From Solirubrobacter phytolaccae (lineage in GTDB: Bacteria > Actinomycetota > Thermoleophilia > Solirubrobacterales > Solirubrobacteraceae): a DNA stretch of 50,046 nt. The notes beneath the pieces were generated by a model. That model saw only the letters and a program-made list of their open reading frames with translations, was not told where the DNA came from and made no database searches. Location: positions 1-50,046 of the forward strand of contig NZ_JAPDDP010000055.1 in NCBI RefSeq assembly GCF_027587195.1, given 5' to 3'. Of this stretch, positions 2,658-34,968 are shown piece by piece. The translations under genes and the position numbers were made by a program. The stretch's first letter is position 1; each line of letters starts with the position of its first letter.

Positions 2658-3337
2658 GCCAGCAGCTCCTTCGCGCCTTCGCGCCCGAGGGCCAGGAGCG
2701 CGTCGAGCGCCGCCATGTAGGGCTCGAAGCCCGGCTGGGCCTGCTCGTAGGTCGGATGCGTGTAGTCGTGGAAGCGCAGCTCGATCCCTGCCTCGTCGAA
2801 GTCCGCCGGGTCAAGATAGTCGCGGCCGAACGGCCCCGAGAGGTACACGGTCGCGCCGACCGCCTTGCACAGGTTCAGCACGAGGTCGGCCTTGGCGCCC
2901 TCGACCTGCAGGTTGCTGGAGAACCGCAGCTCGGTGGTGATGGCGAGCGCCTCGAGCTGGTGGGTGAGCGTCTCGCGCTGGAGGTCGATCAGCCGCTCCC
3001 ACGTGCGGGCGAAGATCGCCTCCCAGTACGGCGCCTCCTCCGCGAAGTGCGCGGCCTTCTTGTAGCCGAAGCGCAGCGTGTCCCAGTGCTTGCGCGCCCA
3101 CGGGCGCTCGTTGGCGATCTCGACCGTGTTGATCGCGAGGTCGCCGAACTTGCCCTTGGTGAGCAGCGGGACGCTGAGCCACGTCCAGCCCTCGTTGGTC
3201 CGCATCTTGTTGCGGTTGGTGAACGAGTTCTTCTCGAACTGGACGTCGTCGAGCACGATGTGCAGGTCCGAGTGCTGGATGCGGTGGAAGTAGCCGAGCC
3301 ACGGCAGGTACGCGGGCTGGTTGATCGAGACGATCAT
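2654..3337 (-). CDS. WbqC family protein
   Basis: A 227-residue WbqC-like protein. The start MIVSINQPAYLPWLGYFH and the downstream LDDVQFEKNSF and YLSGPFGRDYL segments are diagnostic of the family. WbqC proteins recur in O-antigen and nonulosonic acid loci, but their biochemical function is not established; an acyl or aminoacyl transfer to the sugar is one idea. It overlaps both operon neighbours by 4 bp (ATGA-type), implying translational coupling. Confidence 0.88.
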   Translation of the reverse strand: MIVSINQPAYLPWLGYFHRIQHSDLHIVLDDVQFEKNSFTNRNKMRTNEGWTWLSVPLLTKGKFGDLAINTVEIANERPWARKHWDTLRFGYKKAAHFAEEAPYWEAIFARTWERLIDLQRETLTHQLEALAITTELRFSSNLQVEGAKADLVLNLCKAVGATVYLSGPFGRDYLDPADFDEAGIELRFHDYTHPTYEQAQPGFEPYMAALDALLALGREGAKELLA

Positions 3338-6180: not shown

Positions 6181-6546
6181 GAACGGCGAGCACACCCGCG
6201 GCCGCCGCGTCAAGAAATCCGTGCCCCAACGGTGTGGCGCCGCGCGGCGGTCGCTACGGATTTCTTGACCCGTCGGGGCGGGTGCGCTCATGTGCAGATG
6301 AGCCGGGTTCCCCGGACTGTGAACGCGTTCGCGTTCCCCTCGAGCGATTCGCTCGGGTTCGTTCCGCGATGCAAAACGATCACGGCCCTCTGCACGCGAG
6401 CGTCGACTTTCTCGTGCTGGAGCCGAGAAACTCGACGCTCGCGTGGCATGTCTCCAAAACGGGCGTGCGCGCCTGGTCCTTCGTGATCGAAACGAGGTGA
6501 ACGCCTGAGCGTTCACTCAGTGAGGGGAACCCTCCTCACCTGCCCA
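6181..6546. repeat. Structured intergenic repeat, copy 1 (366 bp)
   Basis: Aligns without gaps to 33267-33632 (offset 27086) with about 16 mismatches by hand count; positions 6256-6446 (191 nt) are identical. Successive hairpins are visible: a 14-bp perfect stem (6209-6222 with 6256-6269); CCGGG/CCCGG (6303-6315); GAACGCG/CGCGTTC (6321-6336); CGAGC/GCTCG (6341-6355); a 21-bp stem with one C-C mismatch (6394-6414 with 6424-6444); GTGAACGC/GCGTTCAC (6497-6516); GTGAGG/CCTCAC (6520-6539). It lies between convergent genes. It could be a REP/MITE-like element or a structured RNA; no transposase is nearby. Confidence 0.85.
6394..6444. other. Long hairpin in repeat copy 1
   Basis: Arms 6394-6414 and 6424-6444 are complementary at 20 of 21 positions (only C6407 faces C6431), with a 9-nt loop TGCTGGAGC. 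It is the strongest secondary structure in the repeat and is identical in copy 2 (33480-33530). Confidence 0.8.
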
Positions 6547-6566
6547 CATCACGCCCGCCGCGACGG

Positions 6567-6626
6567 GTCAAGCAATTCCTGACGACCGCGTCGTCAGCCT
6601 CAACGCCGGGGCATGAATTGCTTGAC
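6567..6626. repeat. Inverted relative of the repeat's first hairpin
   Basis: GTCAAGCAATTC (6567-6578) pairs with 6615-6626; the loop contains its own 8-bp hairpin (CTGACGAC 6579-6586 with 6590-6597). Read on the minus strand, it and its flank match the left end of the repeat: CACAC-CGCGG-CGCCGCGTCAAG-AAT, then TGCCCC. So copy 1 is bounded by two related hairpin modules in opposite orientation. Copy 2 has a different hairpin at this place. Confidence 0.7.
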
Positions 6627-6658
6627 GCGGCGCCCGCGCGTGTGATCAGCCGTTGCCG

Positions 6659-7948
6659 TTACCGCGCGGCGAGCGCGGAAGCGAAGCGCGGCAGCGCGCC
6701 GATGCGGCCCGCGGCCGGCCACTCGCTGAGGAGCGTGTCGGCCCGCTCGGCGAGGGCGGCGTCGACCTTCGGGGAGCCCGCGAGCGGGGCGAGGAGCATG
6801 TCCGGGAGGCGGTTGGGGTCCACGCCGGAGGTCTCGATCGCCGTCTCGGCCATGGCGAGGAGCTCCTCGGCCGGGACGCCCGGGGCCCACAGGAGCAGGC
6901 TTGCGTCGTCCTCGGGGCCGTAGGTGTTGCAGTAGGCCTTCAGGAGGGCGGGGTTCTCGACGAGCTCGTCGGCGAGGGCCAGGGTGGTGTGGCTGCGGGT
7001 CTCGTCGATGTGGACGGGCGCGTCGGGGTCCTCGGACATGATGCGCTCGACGAGGCGGACGAACTTGAGGGGGTCGAAGTCCTCGCCGACGTAGCGGCGG
7101 CGCCAGGCGGTGGCCTCGGTGCGGGCGGCGGTGCGCACGAGCGTCTCGAGGTCGCCGTTGGCGAGGTCGTACGGGTACTGCGCGTAGTCCCAGTAGAGCT
7201 CGGGCCGGTCGGGCATCAGCTTGGGGGTCTCGCCCGGGAAGCCGATCGCCATCACGCCCTGGCCGTAGACGACGGTCGGGACGCCGCGGGCGACCGCGAT
7301 CGTCGGGTAGGTGCCGTCGGCGGCGACGACCGCGTCGGCGCGGTCCATCTCGGTGTTCTGCGCCGAGGTGCGGCCGTTGACGTAGGTGACGCCTTCGGCC
7401 TTCCAGAGGCCGTTCTGCTCGAGCGTGCCGATGTGGCGGACGGTGATCTTGAAGGGGGAGGCGAGGAGCTGCTCGAAGGCCTTGGTGTTCCAGTCGCGCT
7501 GGACGTCGGTCATCGAGCCGTCGCCGTTGGGATGCCACGGCGCGAACACGACGTTGCGGACGTCCTCGCAGGTGCGGAACGGCAACTGGTCGCAGTAGGT
7601 CCAGCCGATGGAGTGGACCTGCGCGGGGTAGTCGATGCGGCGCAGGTACTCGGCGTGGCCGGGGCCGGTCACGAGGTTCGCGAACACGCGCGCGTCCGGC
7701 GCCCACAGGCCCTCATAGCTCAGCTGCGGACCGCCGCCGCCGTGCGGATAGAGGATGATCTTCGCCCCCATCTCCGAGTACGTGTCGAGGAGACGCTTGT
7801 GGAGCAGGTACGGGGGATCGAGGTCGAGCAGCAGGATGTCGACCTCGCCGTCCGGCTGGAACGTGTGCCCAGCCGCGGCGAGTGCGCCGACGAACGCGTG
7901 GGATTTGCGGCCGTGGTCGCGGACTGAGATCTTCAGACGGCGGTTCAT
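6659..7948 (-). CDS. GT-B-fold glycosyltransferase-like protein
   Basis: A 429-residue cytoplasmic protein, family not firmly recognised. The second half has ADAVVAADGTYPTIAVARGV followed by PTVVYGQG, which resembles the nucleotide-binding half of GT-B enzymes such as CDP-glycerol glycerophosphotransferases and sugar epimerases; FAPWHPNGDGS and LYPHGGGG fit a GT-B inter-domain region. A role in surface glycan transfer is inferred from this and from the nearby nonulosonic acid genes. ATG at 7948 is preceded by an AGGAG ribosome-binding site. The gene ends next to the right-hand repeat hairpin. Confidence 0.65.
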   Translation of the reverse strand: MNRRLKISVRDHGRKSHAFVGALAAAGHTFQPDGEVDILLLDLDPPYLLHKRLLDTYSEMGAKIILYPHGGGGPQLSYEGLWAPDARVFANLVTGPGHAEYLRRIDYPAQVHSIGWTYCDQLPFRTCEDVRNVVFAPWHPNGDGSMTDVQRDWNTKAFEQLLASPFKITVRHIGTLEQNGLWKAEGVTYVNGRTSAQNTEMDRADAVVAADGTYPTIAVARGVPTVVYGQGVMAIGFPGETPKLMPDRPELYWDYAQYPYDLANGDLETLVRTAARTEATAWRRRYVGEDFDPLKFVRLVERIMSEDPDAPVHIDETRSHTTLALADELVENPALLKAYCNTYGPEDDASLLLWAPGVPAEELLAMAETAIETSGVDPNRLPDMLLAPLAGSPKVDAALAERADTLLSEWPAAGRIGALPRFASALAAR

Positions 7949-17834: not shown

Positions 17835-19378
17835 GCGAGACCGCCGCTTTCCCCGAATGGGTTCTGCTCGCCGGAATGATCCTGGCGGCGGTGCTCGCGG
17901 CCGCGGCCGTGCTCGGTCGCACCGTGCGCGGGCGCGCGTGGGCGATGCTCGGCGCGCTCATCCTCACGCCGGTCCTGCTCGTGGGGGAGATCTGGAACTC
18001 GCCGCAGGTCGAGACGATCCGCGACCGCCCGGTGCTGGGCCTGGCCGCGGCGGGCATCGGCGTCGTCGCGATGGGCGGCCTGGCGTGGCTGTTCGCGCGC
18101 CGGCCCGGGTTCTTCGCCGTGCTGGCGCTCGCGGCGCTGCCGTTCCGCGTCCCGGTCGAGGCGGGCGGGAGCACCGCCAACCTCCTCGTCCCGCTCTACG
18201 TCGTGATCGGGGCGGGTGCGCTCGCGTGGCTCATCCCGCGGCTGGCCGCGCGGCACGCCGGCACCCCCGCGGAGCGTGCCGGGTGGCTCGAGTGGGTGCT
18301 GCTCGGCGGGATCGTGCTCTACGCCGCGCAGTCGATCTACGGCGACGGGCACGCGAAGGCGTTCGAGCAGGTGATCTTCTTCTACGTTCCGTTCGCGCTG
18401 CTGTTCGTGCTGCTGCGCGGCCTGGAGTGGACGCCGCGGCGGCTGCTGTGGGGCGGCGGCGTGCTGGTCGTGCTCGCCCTGATCTTCACCGGGATCGGCT
18501 TCTGGGAGTTCCAGACGCGGCACCTGCTGCTGAACCCGAAGGTGATCGCGTCCAACCAGGTCGAGGAGTACTTCCGGGTCAACTCGCTGTTCTTCGACCC
18601 GAACATCTACGGTCGGTTCCTCGCGCTGGTGATGCTCGGGCTGGCGAGCGTGCTGCTGTGGGCCAAGCGGCCGCGGAACCTGCTGCTGGCGATCGCCGCG
18701 CTGGTCGTGCTCTGGGGCGGCCTGCTGACGACGCTCTCGCAGTCGAGCTTCGCCGCGCTGCTGCTCGGCCTGGTCGTGCTCGCGGCGCTCCGGTGGAGCG
18801 TCAAGCTCGTGGCCATCCCGGTCGCGCTGGCCGTGGTCGTCGCGGCGATCGTGATCTTCGCCTTCCCGAGCGCGCTGCGGCTCGACTTCGACTCGGACTC
18901 GCTCAACGACGCCACCTCGGGCCGCGTCGAGCTGATGGAGGGCGGCGTGGACCTCGCCCGCGAGAAGCTCCTGACGGGCTGGGGCGCGGGCAGCTTCAAC
19001 ACCGAGTACCGGCGCGCCGAGCGCGCGTCCGGGCGTGAGGCGACGTCGGCCTCGCACACGATCCCGATCACGGTCGCCGCCGAGCAGGGCATCGTCGGGC
19101 TGGCCGTCTACATCGCGCTGCTCGTGCTGGCCTTCCGCCGGCTGCTGCGCGGCGCGAGCGGGAACCCGGTGCGGGCCGCGATCGCGGCGGGCTTCGCCGC
19201 GCTCGTCCTCCACACGTGGCTCTACGCCGCCTTCCTCGAGGACCCCGTGGTGTGGACGCTGCTCGCGCTGGGCTCGGCGCTGGCGGCGTCGGCGCCGCGC
19301 TCGCGCCGCCGGCCCGCGGACGACGCGACGGCCGCGCTCAACGGGCACCGCAAAGAGTCCGCCGCCGTCGTCCCGTGA
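17831..19378 (+). CDS. O-antigen ligase/polymerase (Wzy-like) membrane protein
   Basis: A 515-residue polytopic protein with about 12 hydrophobic segments. The large periplasmic-loop signature of the Wzy/WaaL family is visible near residue 365: SGRVELMEGGVDLAREKLLTG then WGAGSFNTEY and later HTIPITVAAEQGIVGL. In a Gram-positive setting it would polymerise lipid-linked repeat units at the outer membrane face. GTG start overlaps the preceding stop (GTGA), and its own stop overlaps the next GTG, so the three genes are coupled. Confidence 0.88.
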   Translation: MSETAAFPEWVLLAGMILAAVLAAAAVLGRTVRGRAWAMLGALILTPVLLVGEIWNSPQVETIRDRPVLGLAAAGIGVVAMGGLAWLFARRPGFFAVLALAALPFRVPVEAGGSTANLLVPLYVVIGAGALAWLIPRLAARHAGTPAERAGWLEWVLLGGIVLYAAQSIYGDGHAKAFEQVIFFYVPFALLFVLLRGLEWTPRRLLWGGGVLVVLALIFTGIGFWEFQTRHLLLNPKVIASNQVEEYFRVNSLFFDPNIYGRFLALVMLGLASVLLWAKRPRNLLLAIAALVVLWGGLLTTLSQSSFAALLLGLVVLAALRWSVKLVAIPVALAVVVAAIVIFAFPSALRLDFDSDSLNDATSGRVELMEGGVDLAREKLLTGWGAGSFNTEYRRAERASGREATSASHTIPITVAAEQGIVGLAVYIALLVLAFRRLLRGASGNPVRAAIAAGFAALVLHTWLYAAFLEDPVVWTLLALGSALAASAPRSRRRPADDATAALNGHRKESAAVVP

Positions 19379-32401: not shown

Positions 32402-33262
<861 letters not shown>

Positions 33263-33266
33263 GCAC

Positions 33267-33632
33267 GAACGGCGAGCACACCCGTGGCCGCCGCGTCAAG
33301 AAATCCGTGCCCCAACGGCGTGGCGCTGCGCGGCGGTCGTCACGGATTTCTTGACCCGTCGGGGCGGGTGCGCTCATGTGCAGATGAGCCGGGTTCCCCG
33401 GACTGTGAACGCGTTCGCGTTCCCCTCGAGCGATTCGCTCGGGTTCGTTCCGCGATGCAAAACGATCACGGCCCTCTGCACGCGAGCGTCGACTTTCTCG
33501 TGCTGGAGCCGAGAAACTCGACGCTCGCGTGGTGCGTCTCCAAAACGGGCGTGCGCGGATGGTCGTATGTGGTCGGATCGAGGTGAACGCCTGAGCGTTC
33601 ACTCAGTGAGGGGAACCCTCCTCACCTGCCCA
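33267..33632. repeat. Structured intergenic repeat, copy 2 (366 bp)
   Basis: Gap-free match to 6181-6546. The first stem is 15 bp here because of a local two-base change that keeps pairing (copy 1 CT at 6254-6255, here TC at 33340-33341). Differences cluster in the first hairpin loop and in the 45 bases after the long hairpin; the 191-nt centre is identical. Like copy 1 it lies between the 3' ends of convergent genes (SDR and lytic transglycosylase). Confidence 0.85.
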
Positions 33633-33634
33633 TC

Positions 33635-33659
33635 CCACATCCGTCGCTAGTGGATGTGG
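33635..33659. terminator. Hairpin between repeat copy 2 and transglycosylase gene
   Basis: CCACATCC (33635-33642) pairs with GGATGTGG (33652-33659), 9-nt loop. It occupies the place where copy 1 has its inverted terminal hairpin. Possibly the terminator of the minus-strand gene; no T tract is seen. Confidence 0.4.
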
Positions 33660-33678
33660 TCAGCCGTTGACGTTGTCC

Positions 33679-34968
33679 CTAGCCGAGCCGGTCGAGCAGC
33701 GGCTCGAGCACGTCCGCGTCACGGCCCGCCGTGACGCGGATGGTGCGCTCCGCGCGCGACCAGGCGATCACGTTGAGCACCGTCAGGCGGTCCAGGACGA
33801 ACTGGAACGCGAGCGCCTGCGGCTCGGACGTGTAGTCGCGGGAGATGCGGAAGCTCGCGCCGTCGTCGGTGGCGCTGGTGAGCTCGAGGGCGCTGCTGCC
33901 GAGGATGGAGCGGACCTCGCCGCCGATGTACACGGCGGTCGCGGCGGCCTCGTCGCGCAGCTTCAGGTCCGGCGGCACTGTCAGGCCCGTGTTCTCGGCC
34001 GTGGCCTTGACGTCGCGCAGGTCGCCCTCGGGCAGGCCGCGCAGCATCGCCAGGCGGCCGCTCTCGTCCCGCGCGCGCTCGGCGGCGGTCCGGGCCACCG
34101 CGGCGGGGTCCTTGCGGTAGGCGCGCATGATGTCCCGCGCGGCGAGCAGCTTCCAGTAGTAGTTCGAGGAGTCGTCGCCGAACGACGCGAGCTTGTCGAA
34201 CGCCGCCCGATGGCGCCGCGGCGTGGAGTCGAAGTACAGCTCCACATAGGGCCGCGGGCCGCCCCCGAACGCCTCGAGGACGTTGTTCAGGTTGCCCATG
34301 CCCATGTGGTAGGAGACGAACGCGAGGTCCTCGCGGCCGTCGAACTCCTTCAGGGCGAGCTGCAGGTAGCGCGCCGTGCCCGCGAGCGCCTTCGCGGGAT
34401 CGAAGCGGTCGTCCACCCGCCGGCGGGCGCGGTTGAGCGCCGCCGCGCGCTTGAGGTTGCCCTCGCGCAGCGCCCGCTCGAGCCGGCGCGTGTAGCTGCC
34501 GCTCCGGTCCGGGTCGATGTCCATCCGCAGCAGGTTCTGGCCCGTCTCGGCGAGGATCTGCGTGAGGCCGGCCGCGCCCGTGATGTTGCCCGGGGCGCGC
34601 GCGTCGGGCCGCCCGGCGCTCTCCAGGAACACGAGCCCTTCGAGCAGGTCCGGGTTCACCCCCGCGGTCTTGGCCGCCGCCTCGACGTCCTTGCGGAACG
34701 TCGCCACGCGCTTGGCGGTCTCCGCCGCGCCGCCCGGTGAGCGGCTGTAGAGCACGCGGCTCGTGCCCGCGGCGGCGCGTCGCGTCAGGTCGTCCGAGCG
34801 CTCCGGCGACCACGCGAACGGGTCCGCGACGGCCTCCCCGCGCTCGGCGCCGGGCGGGGTCGGGATGACCGGGACGTTCGGGTCCTCGTCGCCGCGGGTG
34901 GAGACGAACAACAGCGCGGCGGCAGCGACGAGCACGGCAGCGACCAGCGCGAGGCGGAGGCGAAGCAC
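33679..34968 (-). CDS. Membrane-anchored lytic transglycosylase (SLT domain)
   Basis: A 429-residue protein with an N-terminal signal anchor (LALVAAVLVAAAALLFV, ~residues 6-22). The SLT (goose-lysozyme-like) domain is at ~90-240: DLLEGLVFLESAGRPDARAP holds the catalytic Glu, then GAAGLTQILAETG and AFVSYHMGMGNLNNVL with the family's YHMG-type motif. It cleaves peptidoglycan glycosidic bonds outside the cell. The C-terminal third has no recognised domain. GTG start at 34968 lies 7 nt after a TAGCCT box shared with pyrD. Confidence 0.88.
   Translation of the reverse strand: MLRLRLALVAAVLVAAAALLFVSTRGDEDPNVPVIPTPPGAERGEAVADPFAWSPERSDDLTRRAAAGTSRVLYSRSPGGAAETAKRVATFRKDVEAAAKTAGVNPDLLEGLVFLESAGRPDARAPGNITGAAGLTQILAETGQNLLRMDIDPDRSGSYTRRLERALREGNLKRAAALNRARRRVDDRFDPAKALAGTARYLQLALKEFDGREDLAFVSYHMGMGNLNNVLEAFGGGPRPYVELYFDSTPRRHRAAFDKLASFGDDSSNYYWKLLAARDIMRAYRKDPAAVARTAAERARDESGRLAMLRGLPEGDLRDVKATAENTGLTVPPDLKLRDEAAATAVYIGGEVRSILGSSALELTSATDDGASFRISRDYTSEPQALAFQFVLDRLTVLNVIAWSRAERTIRVTAGRDADVLEPLLDRLG

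What the first reader, a model, noticed from the sequence alone, without database searches (positions are those of the whole stretch)
6181..6546. Duplicated 366-bp structured intergenic element
Two gap-free copies (second at 33267-33632) share about 350 of 366 bases, with 191 consecutive identical bases (6256-6446), although both are intergenic. Each folds into a string of at least seven hairpins, including a 21-bp stem with one mismatch. Both lie between the 3' ends of convergent genes. Such conservation without a protein or transposase points to a non-autonomous mobile element (REP/BIME or MITE-like) or a structured RNA. I recognise no known family.
Basis: seen in the sequence. Interest (0 to 1): 0.72.

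Follow-up and report, generated by a model that had tools for sequence, protein, structure and literature searches.

The report
Nested hairpin mosaic repeat in Solirubrobacter
The duplicated sequence is one of dozens of mosaic, hairpin-built DNA repeats sitting at gene ends in a soil actinobacterium, and its central hairpin is of the kind that brackets some nuclease genes, which may be what spreads it.

Summary
It is no two-copy duplication: the genome, a Solirubrobacter, gave 110 matches, both strands and pieces counted; I delimited 49 elements or fragments. The true element is larger: 6182-6660, and 33263-33678 between two CTAG. Each is a string of hairpins (cap-B-C-core-C'-B'-cap') whose modules are exchanged between copies. 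Caps keep pairing through change: 98.9% of cells paired, 140 two-sided changes (0 of 500 shuffles as high), with an invariant C·C mismatch (68 of 68). Caps were found in 5 of 121 family genomes, all Solirubrobacter. Elements sit at gene 3' ends (22 of 38 convergent; background 22 of 204). An empty site shows insertion. The core hairpin M2, a 43-bp unit, also occurs alone in two other genera, and inverted pairs bracket AbiEi-DUF559 nuclease genes L260 and L267; end sequences of this genome's one DUF559 gene found match composite modules. Best reading: non-autonomous REP/MITE-like DNA elements whose core hairpin is kin to DUF559 gene ends; mobilisation by that nuclease is inferred. RAYT and Rfam readings fail.

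The parts
6182..6660 (.). composite element, copy 1 (479 bp), from terminal AACGGC to terminal GCCGTTGCCGTT; overall inverted repeat
   Evidence: self-match of 484 bp at 68.6% on the opposite strand; boundaries from flank alignment
6188..6289 (.). left cap hairpin (GAGCACACC..TCAAG..CTTGAC..GGTGCGCTC), with C·C and G·G mismatches
   Evidence: fold, cap alignment A1, pattern hit 6191-6214, R1 hit 114 bits
6300..6319 (.). hairpin B1 GAGCCGGGTTCCCCGGACTG
   Evidence: sequence; module table
6321..6336 (.). hairpin C1 GAACGCGTTCGCGTTC
   Evidence: sequence; module table
6393..6445 (.). core hairpin M2 (43-bp unit 6398-6440) with one C·C mismatch; same kind as hairpins at the ends of DUF559 genes L260, L267
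6497..6516 (.). hairpin C2' GTGAACGCCTGAGCGTTCAC
   Evidence: sequence; module table
6520..6539 (.). hairpin B2' GTGAGGGGAACCCTCCTCAC
   Evidence: sequence; module table
   Evidence: model R1 hit 6540-6650 minus strand, 103.2 bits; pattern hit 6621-6644
33263..33678 (.). composite element, copy 2 (416 bp), flanked on both sides by CTAG; right cap has lost its inner stem
   Evidence: sequence; empty sites in G003 and G006
33271..33382 (.). left cap hairpin of copy 2
   Evidence: R1 hit, 112 bits
33479..33531 (.). core hairpin M2 of copy 2
33259..33262 (.). CTAG left of copy 2, holding the stop codon of the SDR gene; possible target duplication
33679..33682 (.). CTAG right of copy 2, holding the stop codon of the convergent gene; possible target duplication

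Best explanation
Both copies belong to a genus-specific family of non-autonomous, mobile, composite palindromic DNA elements. SHOWN: dispersal in one genome, modular mosaic anatomy, cap hairpins kept complementary through two-sided change, presence mostly at gene 3' ends, an empty site in relatives, and a central hairpin (M2 and variants) of the kind found at the ends of several AbiEi-DUF559 nuclease genes. INFERRED: the AbiEi winged-helix domain recognises the hairpin, the DUF559 (PD-(D/E)XK/Vsr-like) domain nicks it, and the hairpin is copied to new sites, as RAYT transposases are thought to do for REPs. Solitary hairpins would be the products; the composites (up to about 580 bp) would arise by nested insertion and gene conversion between copies, surviving at stop codons, above all between convergent genes. 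Any effect on mRNA ends would be a by-product.
For: 110 matches; 49 elements or fragments with reshuffled modules; caps in 5 of 121 family genomes. Cap covariation. Convergent location 22 of 38 against 22 of 204, p 1e-9. Empty site of copy 2 in G003 and G006; rpsF-ssb site filled with different modules in four genomes. M2 unit of 43 bp with C·C in 14 of 20 distinct pattern-matched copies from three genera; it occurs alone in two other genera and in capless G005. DUF559 genes abut 4 of 25 M2 places examined outside G000 (19 in 10-kb windows; six in 3-kb loci), of 27 listed, against 2 DUF559 genes in 1.6 Mb of tiles. Hairpins at both ends, inverted, in L260 and L267; 16-nt inverted ends in L294, found in tiles (1 of 1000 random placements). 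End sequences of L294 and L271 hit composite elements almost only (best E 1.6e-7 and 3.5e-10). Pfam: AbiEi_4 and DUF559 over cut-off in 3 of 3 tested.
Against: No movement or cleavage was observed. Caps, B and C are not tied to DUF559 genes. Of two DUF559 genes found in tiles, L294 has inverted ends but no 5' hairpin by my score (983 of 1000 random as good) and a borderline 3' one (60 of 1000); L321 reaches significance nowhere (69, 132 and 140 of 1000); L271 neither. The G063 tiles skipped 4.70-4.72 Mb, where L260 lies. AbiEi proteins bind inverted repeats as autoregulators (PMC7319586, passages), so a 5' hairpin could be an operator. No consistent target duplication: CTAG/CTAG at copy 2, TTAA-like at rpsF. 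No autonomous copy bounded by caps among the 72 pattern hits. The A-T/A·C alternation at two cap positions would be U-A/U·G on the other strand, as in a structured RNA.
Confidence: 0.48

Rival explanations
1. A MITE family moved by a conventional DDE transposase that cuts at TA/YTAR targets. The hairpins only reflect fold-back ends, and the DUF559 link is an insertion of one element into another.
For: CTAG on both sides of copy 2 and TTTAA..TTAAA at rpsF-ssb; ends often read TAACGGC; most bacterial MITEs of that review carry TA at their ends (PMC2229807, passages).
Against: Ends are ragged, with AACGGC runs; no consistent duplication in the flanks listed; no gene lies between paired caps among the 72 pattern hits; inverted M2 pairs bracket DUF559 genes in two genera where the cap model found nothing. 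I did not search for DDE transposase families.
Confidence: 0.25
2. The hairpins are AbiEi operators or 3'-end RNA structures with a regulatory role, spread by recombination rather than transposition.
For: AbiEi binds paired 23-bp inverted repeats (PMC7319586, passages); 3'-end location; strong folding of either strand; A-T/A·C alternation at two cap positions, U-A/U·G on the other strand.
Against: Elements lie next to unrelated genes; at rpsF and groEL they lie beyond intact terminators; among the 23 pairs counted only 5 one-sided cells of 1541; caps absent from two of seven genus genomes; copy 2 is missing from relatives.
Confidence: 0.18
3. A REP/BIME system of RAYT tyrosine transposases.
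For: Mosaic palindromes between convergent genes, like BIMEs; two Y1_Tnp genes in the genome.
Against: 11 of 13 Y1_Tnp loci of the genus have a nearby palindrome, of other sequence (TAAAGAGGGACAGTCCCTCTTTA and the like); two (L138, L146) show none outside the gene. Best match of an element to these loci E 2.5e-4 over 29 bases, over 400 bp from the gene, taken as chance in GC-rich DNA.
Confidence: 0.04

Closest known systems
RAYT/REP and BIME systems (IS200/IS605-like Y1 transposases)
   Same: gene flanked by two inverted hairpins, solitary hairpins dispersed in the genome, clustering into mosaics, position at gene 3' ends (PMC2817692 and PMC3733652, abstracts and passages)
   Different: nuclease is AbiEi-DUF559, not a Y1 tyrosine enzyme; hairpins of 43-53 bp or about 100 bp, not 20-40; no GTAG/CGTC tag seen; composites up to about 580 bp with nested caps
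MITEs such as ERIC, YPAL, RUP, Correia
   Same: non-coding, palindromic, dispersed, empty/filled sites (PMC2229807, passages)
   Different: modular and nested, no fixed ends, no consistent target duplication, no parent IS found (DDE families not searched)
Intrinsic terminators / structured RNA families
   Same: stable hairpins downstream of genes
   Different: no Rfam match; present in addition to real terminators at rpsF and groEL

Membership tests
GTAG/CGTC REP superfamilies | 20-40 bp palindrome with an unpaired GTAG or CGTC tag at one end | tested here: not met
   M2 unit is 43 bp, caps are near 100 nt; the GTC of the cap's CGTC is paired in 66 to 67 of 67 distinct rows, one further row by G-U; no GTAG tag seen by eye in alignment A1
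RAYT-REP | Y1 transposase gene flanked by the same palindromes | tested here: not met
   Y1_Tnp genes in 6 of 7 genus genomes, 13 loci; palindromes near them have other sequences
BIME-type mosaic element | palindromic units in alternating orientation combined with other motifs into mosaics | tested here: met
   module table of 49 elements or fragments
BIME-type mosaic element | units are REPs | tested here: not met
   see the two REP rows
MITE | insertion into an empty site | tested here: met
   copy 2: stops 4 bp apart in G003 and overlapping in G006; one locus
MITE | target site duplication | tested here: inconclusive
   CTAG/CTAG at copy 2; no consistent pattern elsewhere
MITE | ends shared with an autonomous transposon of a known IS family | tested here: inconclusive
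   no gene between paired caps in the own genome; DDE transposase families were not searched
Structured RNA family (Rfam) | match at gathering score | tested here: not met
   0 matches in the window
Structured RNA | transcript | not testable with these tools
   no RNA-seq
DUF559 hairpin element (proposed) | AbiEi-DUF559 gene with inverted hairpins at both ends | tested here: inconclusive
   met in L260 and L267; inverted ends but no 5' hairpin in L294; two different hairpins in L256; not significant in L271 and L321

The most novel reading that the evidence does not exclude
AbiEi-DUF559 (Vsr-like) proteins are a previously unrecognised kind of hairpin-mobilising nuclease: the gene is bounded by inverted hairpins with a conserved C·C mismatch, the ends of the open reading frame being themselves written in the hairpins (EKLDAR / SVEFL..KSTLA), and the enzyme spreads solitary hairpins, which in Solirubrobacter have piled up into nested mosaic elements.
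Probability: 0.35. Interest if true: 0.85.

Novelty: new variant of a known kind. Interest (0 to 1): 0.6.

Why it matters
Palindromic repeats without a known mobiliser (the CGTC REPs are one case, PMC3733652, abstract and passages) are a standing puzzle. A repeat whose hairpin is kin to the ends of a DUF559 gene offers a concrete enzyme to test, and would give a role to a domain that Pfam still calls 'protein of unknown function'. The caps also show strong covariation with few wobble intermediates among the pairs counted, a pattern that module exchange or arm copying in DNA could make and that an RNA covariation test alone could misread.

Tried and rejected
Segmental duplication: rejected by copy number and different sites. 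RAYT mobilisation: rejected by Y1_Tnp flanks. Known RNA: no Rfam hit. Terminator: the element lies beyond terminators at rpsF and groEL. Autonomous element bounded by caps: no cap pair with a gene between, by the positions of 72 hits. Plasmid, phage or virus origin: no matches. DUF559 relatives: none in plasmids (one protein, E 1e-5); in viral contigs 38 stretches matched a peptide pattern and none encoded a relative. Universal TA/YTAR duplication: not supported beyond two loci. Empty site for copy 1: locus not colinear in G003 and G005. Class-wide cap search: 4 of 299, one of them outside the genus and marginal (G175, E 6.5e-5, L236), which I take as chance. 400 kb of G005 held no DUF559 gene. 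The first flank test used hand-set coordinates and did not show the L294 inverted ends; it was repeated with protein-motif anchors.

Rows dropped: in the cap alignment one chance regex hit (L133:240) and duplicates were removed, 75 to 68 rows. The M2 table holds only copies that fit a pattern and so leaves out degenerate ones such as L254 and L272. G001 loci were fetched but not read in the empty-site comparisons.

After the self-check I lowered the best explanation from 0.50 to 0.48 and raised the RNA/operator rival from 0.15 to 0.18, because the A-T/A·C alternation at two cap positions had been left out of the wobble argument.

Full report
OBSERVATION. The two stretches are as described: 350 of 366 identical positions without a gap and a 191-base identical run at 6256-6446. 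Either strand folds far better than shuffles, 0 of 100 as stable. The element is bigger than the box drawn. Copy 1 runs from the terminal AACGGC at 6182 to GCCGTTGCCGTT at 6660, and the stop codon of the right-hand gene (6659-6661) overlaps its last two bases. Copy 2 runs from 33263 to 33678 between two CTAG tetramers. Copy 1 matches its own reverse complement over 484 bp at 68.6%.

COPY NUMBER AND RANGE. The window is contig C120 of a 7.74-Mb genome in 169 contigs. The 491-bp query gave 110 matches there, counting both strands and pieces (40 of 165 candidates scored). A 24-base cap pattern with up to 3 mismatches gave 72 hits against 5 for the reversed control. From fetched stretches I delimited 49 elements or fragments; several lie near contig ends, so copies may be missing. 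In the named species collection the exact pattern was found only in Solirubrobacter taibaiensis, S. deserti and Solirubrobacter sp. CPCC 204708 (22 stretches); contig lengths there agree with genus genomes G006 and G002, so the window's genome is a Solirubrobacter. A covariance model of the cap (R1) found it in 5 of 121 family genomes, all in this genus: 5 of the 7 genus genomes, not G004 or G005. A class scan found 4 of 299: three of the genus plus one marginal hit that I take as chance. Both scans used the stricter filters and a drawn sample. Nothing was found in plasmids or phages (distant blastn), viral contigs (exact pattern) or Rfam.

ANATOMY. Fuller copies share one plan: cap hairpin, hairpin B, hairpin C, core, then C', B' and cap' in reverse orientation. 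Each position has alternatives exchanged between copies: three outer cap variants, long and short cap loops, five B types and six core types (M2, M2b, M3, M4, M5, M6) by my patterns. A second group has other outer arms (GTGGMGYTCMGC.. to CGGGGAGCACACC) and other cores. Many copies are truncated. Runs of AACGGC occur at some ends.

PAIRING. In 68 oriented caps (67 distinct), the 23-pair stem, itself predicted from this alignment, has 98.9% of cells paired, 140 two-sided and 5 one-sided changed cells of 1541; the covariation score is 0.243 against 0.072 in shuffles. No shuffle of 500 reached the percentage, the two-sided cells or the score; 2 and 10 of 500 reached the two measures that count pairs and types. 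Sliding the partner by 1-3 columns destroys it. Pair 13-104 is G-C in 34 and C-G in 32 distinct rows, a flip with no wobble intermediate. This fits copying of one arm from the other, or replacement of whole hairpins, at least as well as stepwise RNA compensation; copies are related, so counts are not independent events. Two further stem positions, not among the 23 pairs, alternate A-T (24 and 25) with A·C (42 and 42 of 68); on the other strand these are U-A and U·G, which speaks for an RNA or is neutral for DNA. One C·C mismatch is invariant (68 of 68) and one G·G nearly so (66 of 68).

LOCATION. My own codon-usage gene caller (crude) put 22 of 38 elements with both neighbours called between convergent genes, 14 between genes of one direction and 2 between divergent genes; 11 more had a neighbour missing. 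Background pairs in the same stretches were 22 convergent, 140 same-direction and 42 divergent of 204 (Fisher p 1e-9 for convergence, 0.02 for scarcity of divergent sites). In 10 of 31 listed left neighbours the stop codon runs straight into the (A)CGGC or ACGTC terminus (counted by eye).

INSERTION. At the site of copy 2 the two stop codons are 4 bp apart in G003 and overlap as CTAG in G006; the stretches read in G002, G005 and G004 also lack the element (G005 and G004 have another neighbouring gene; G001 was not read). At rpsF-ssb, elements with different modules occur in G000, G003, G006 and, shortened, G002, between two intrinsic terminators; G005 has one small GGGGGTGCGTGACGAAAC hairpin and G004 no recognisable element in the stretch printed. 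At groEL, G000 and G006 have elements beyond the groEL terminator, G003 a remnant, and G002, G005 and G004 none in the stretches printed. So elements are gained, persist and differ in content at shared sites, and the element is not the terminator there.

THE CORE HAIRPIN AND DUF559. M2 occurs alone in G005 (no caps) and in two other genera, G063 and G008. Of 20 distinct pattern-matched copies from four genomes of three genera, 14 have C·C at pair 10-34. My pattern fixed most arm positions, so the constancy of pairs 5-9 is imposed; position 34 was free, position 10 could be C, G or A, and positions 32-33 were free yet pair as T-A in 20 of 20. In G063 (L260) and G008 (L267) inverted M2 copies stand directly at both ends of a gene of about 300 codons with AbiEi_4 and DUF559 domains over their cut-offs, MTES_1575 being below its own. 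Five aligned proteins keep D225, E236, D238 and H243, which I read from general knowledge as a PD-(D/E)XK-type site. Of 27 M2 places outside G000, 25 were examined and 4 abut such a gene: L256, L260, L267, L271. In G006 (L271) the gene's 5' end holds a degenerate hairpin, not significant by score (407 of 1000), whose right arm shares 21 bases with window 6428-6448. In G005 (L256) an internally deleted gene has an M4-type hairpin at its 5' side (10 of 1000) and M2 at its 3' side (2 of 1000).

In 1.6 Mb of tiles taken without regard to DUF559 (800 kb G000, 400 kb G063 omitting the 20 kb with L260, 400 kb G005) two DUF559 genes turned up. L294 (G000) carries a 16-nt inverted repeat between its flanks (1 of 1000 random placements as long), a borderline 3' hairpin (60 of 1000) and no 5' hairpin by score (983 of 1000). 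Its 3' end matches modules of elements L136 (E 1.6e-7), L133, L131, L125 and L118 (2.4e-5 each), its 5' flank L118 (8e-6) and the window's M2 (0.004). L321 (G063) is significant on no measure (69, 132, 140 of 1000). In a 1.115-Mb search space of partly overlapping G000 stretches, where the delimited elements are 15.6 kb, the hits of these end sequences fell in or within 250 bp of elements, apart from self-hits, L306 (the place of element L129 read from another tile), solitary M2 in L272 (0.048) and L282 (0.048). Read in frame, window M2 gives ERRLSRAGAEKLDARVA, like ERRLSPPHAEKLDARAD at the start of L260, and in another frame SVDFLVLEPRNSTLAW, like SVEFLSMTLRKSTLAAW at its end.

MECHANISM. Shown: dispersal, mosaics, complementary arms, insertion, and kinship of the core hairpin with DUF559 gene ends. 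Inferred: recognition by AbiEi, nicking by DUF559, copying of hairpins, nesting, gene conversion. [quoted passage not shown] The main alternative for the 5' hairpin is an operator, since AbiEi binds paired 23-bp inverted repeats (PMC7319586, passages); it does not explain the 3' hairpin or the solitary copies. A conventional transposase was not searched for and remains the main rival.

NOVELTY. Nine paper searches in the held library showed in their listings nothing on Solirubrobacter repeats or on DUF559 with hairpins; the three papers with DUF559 and 'transpos' were seen as listings only. I file the composites as a new variant of the mosaic palindromic kind, and the DUF559 link as the part worth testing.

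Noticed in passing
L119 (G000 C103:31000-37300) near 3040; L033 (G003) near 1500: Runs of several AACGGC hexamers (about nine and about seven) at an element end, a likely slippage product.
   Followed up: no
L059, L060, L138-L148: Y1_Tnp (RAYT-like) genes of the genus, 11 of 13 with a nearby palindrome such as TAAAGAGGGACAGTCCCTCTTTA or TAAAGGGGTCTGACCCCTTTA, unrelated to the element.
   Followed up: partly
L107, L123, L128, L131, L103, L095: Several elements lie within about 1.1 kb of contig ends, suggesting that the repeats break the assembly and that copies are missing.
   Followed up: no
L310 from 3886 and L320 from 624: Long hairpins (scores 25 and 20) of other sequence, in G000 and G063; possible further hairpin families.
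   Followed up: no
L344 from 16471: Solitary M4-like hairpin GGGGGTGGCCTACG..CGTAGAACACCCCC in G005.
   Followed up: no
window 18236-18330: ARAGORN calls a 95-base tRNA-Arg (anticodon gcg), unusually long; could be spurious.
   Followed up: no
L094, L104, L108, L112, L127 (right side): A further large palindrome (GGGYCTGTCAAGCCC..CGCCTTGACAGG) lies next to second-group elements.
   Followed up: no
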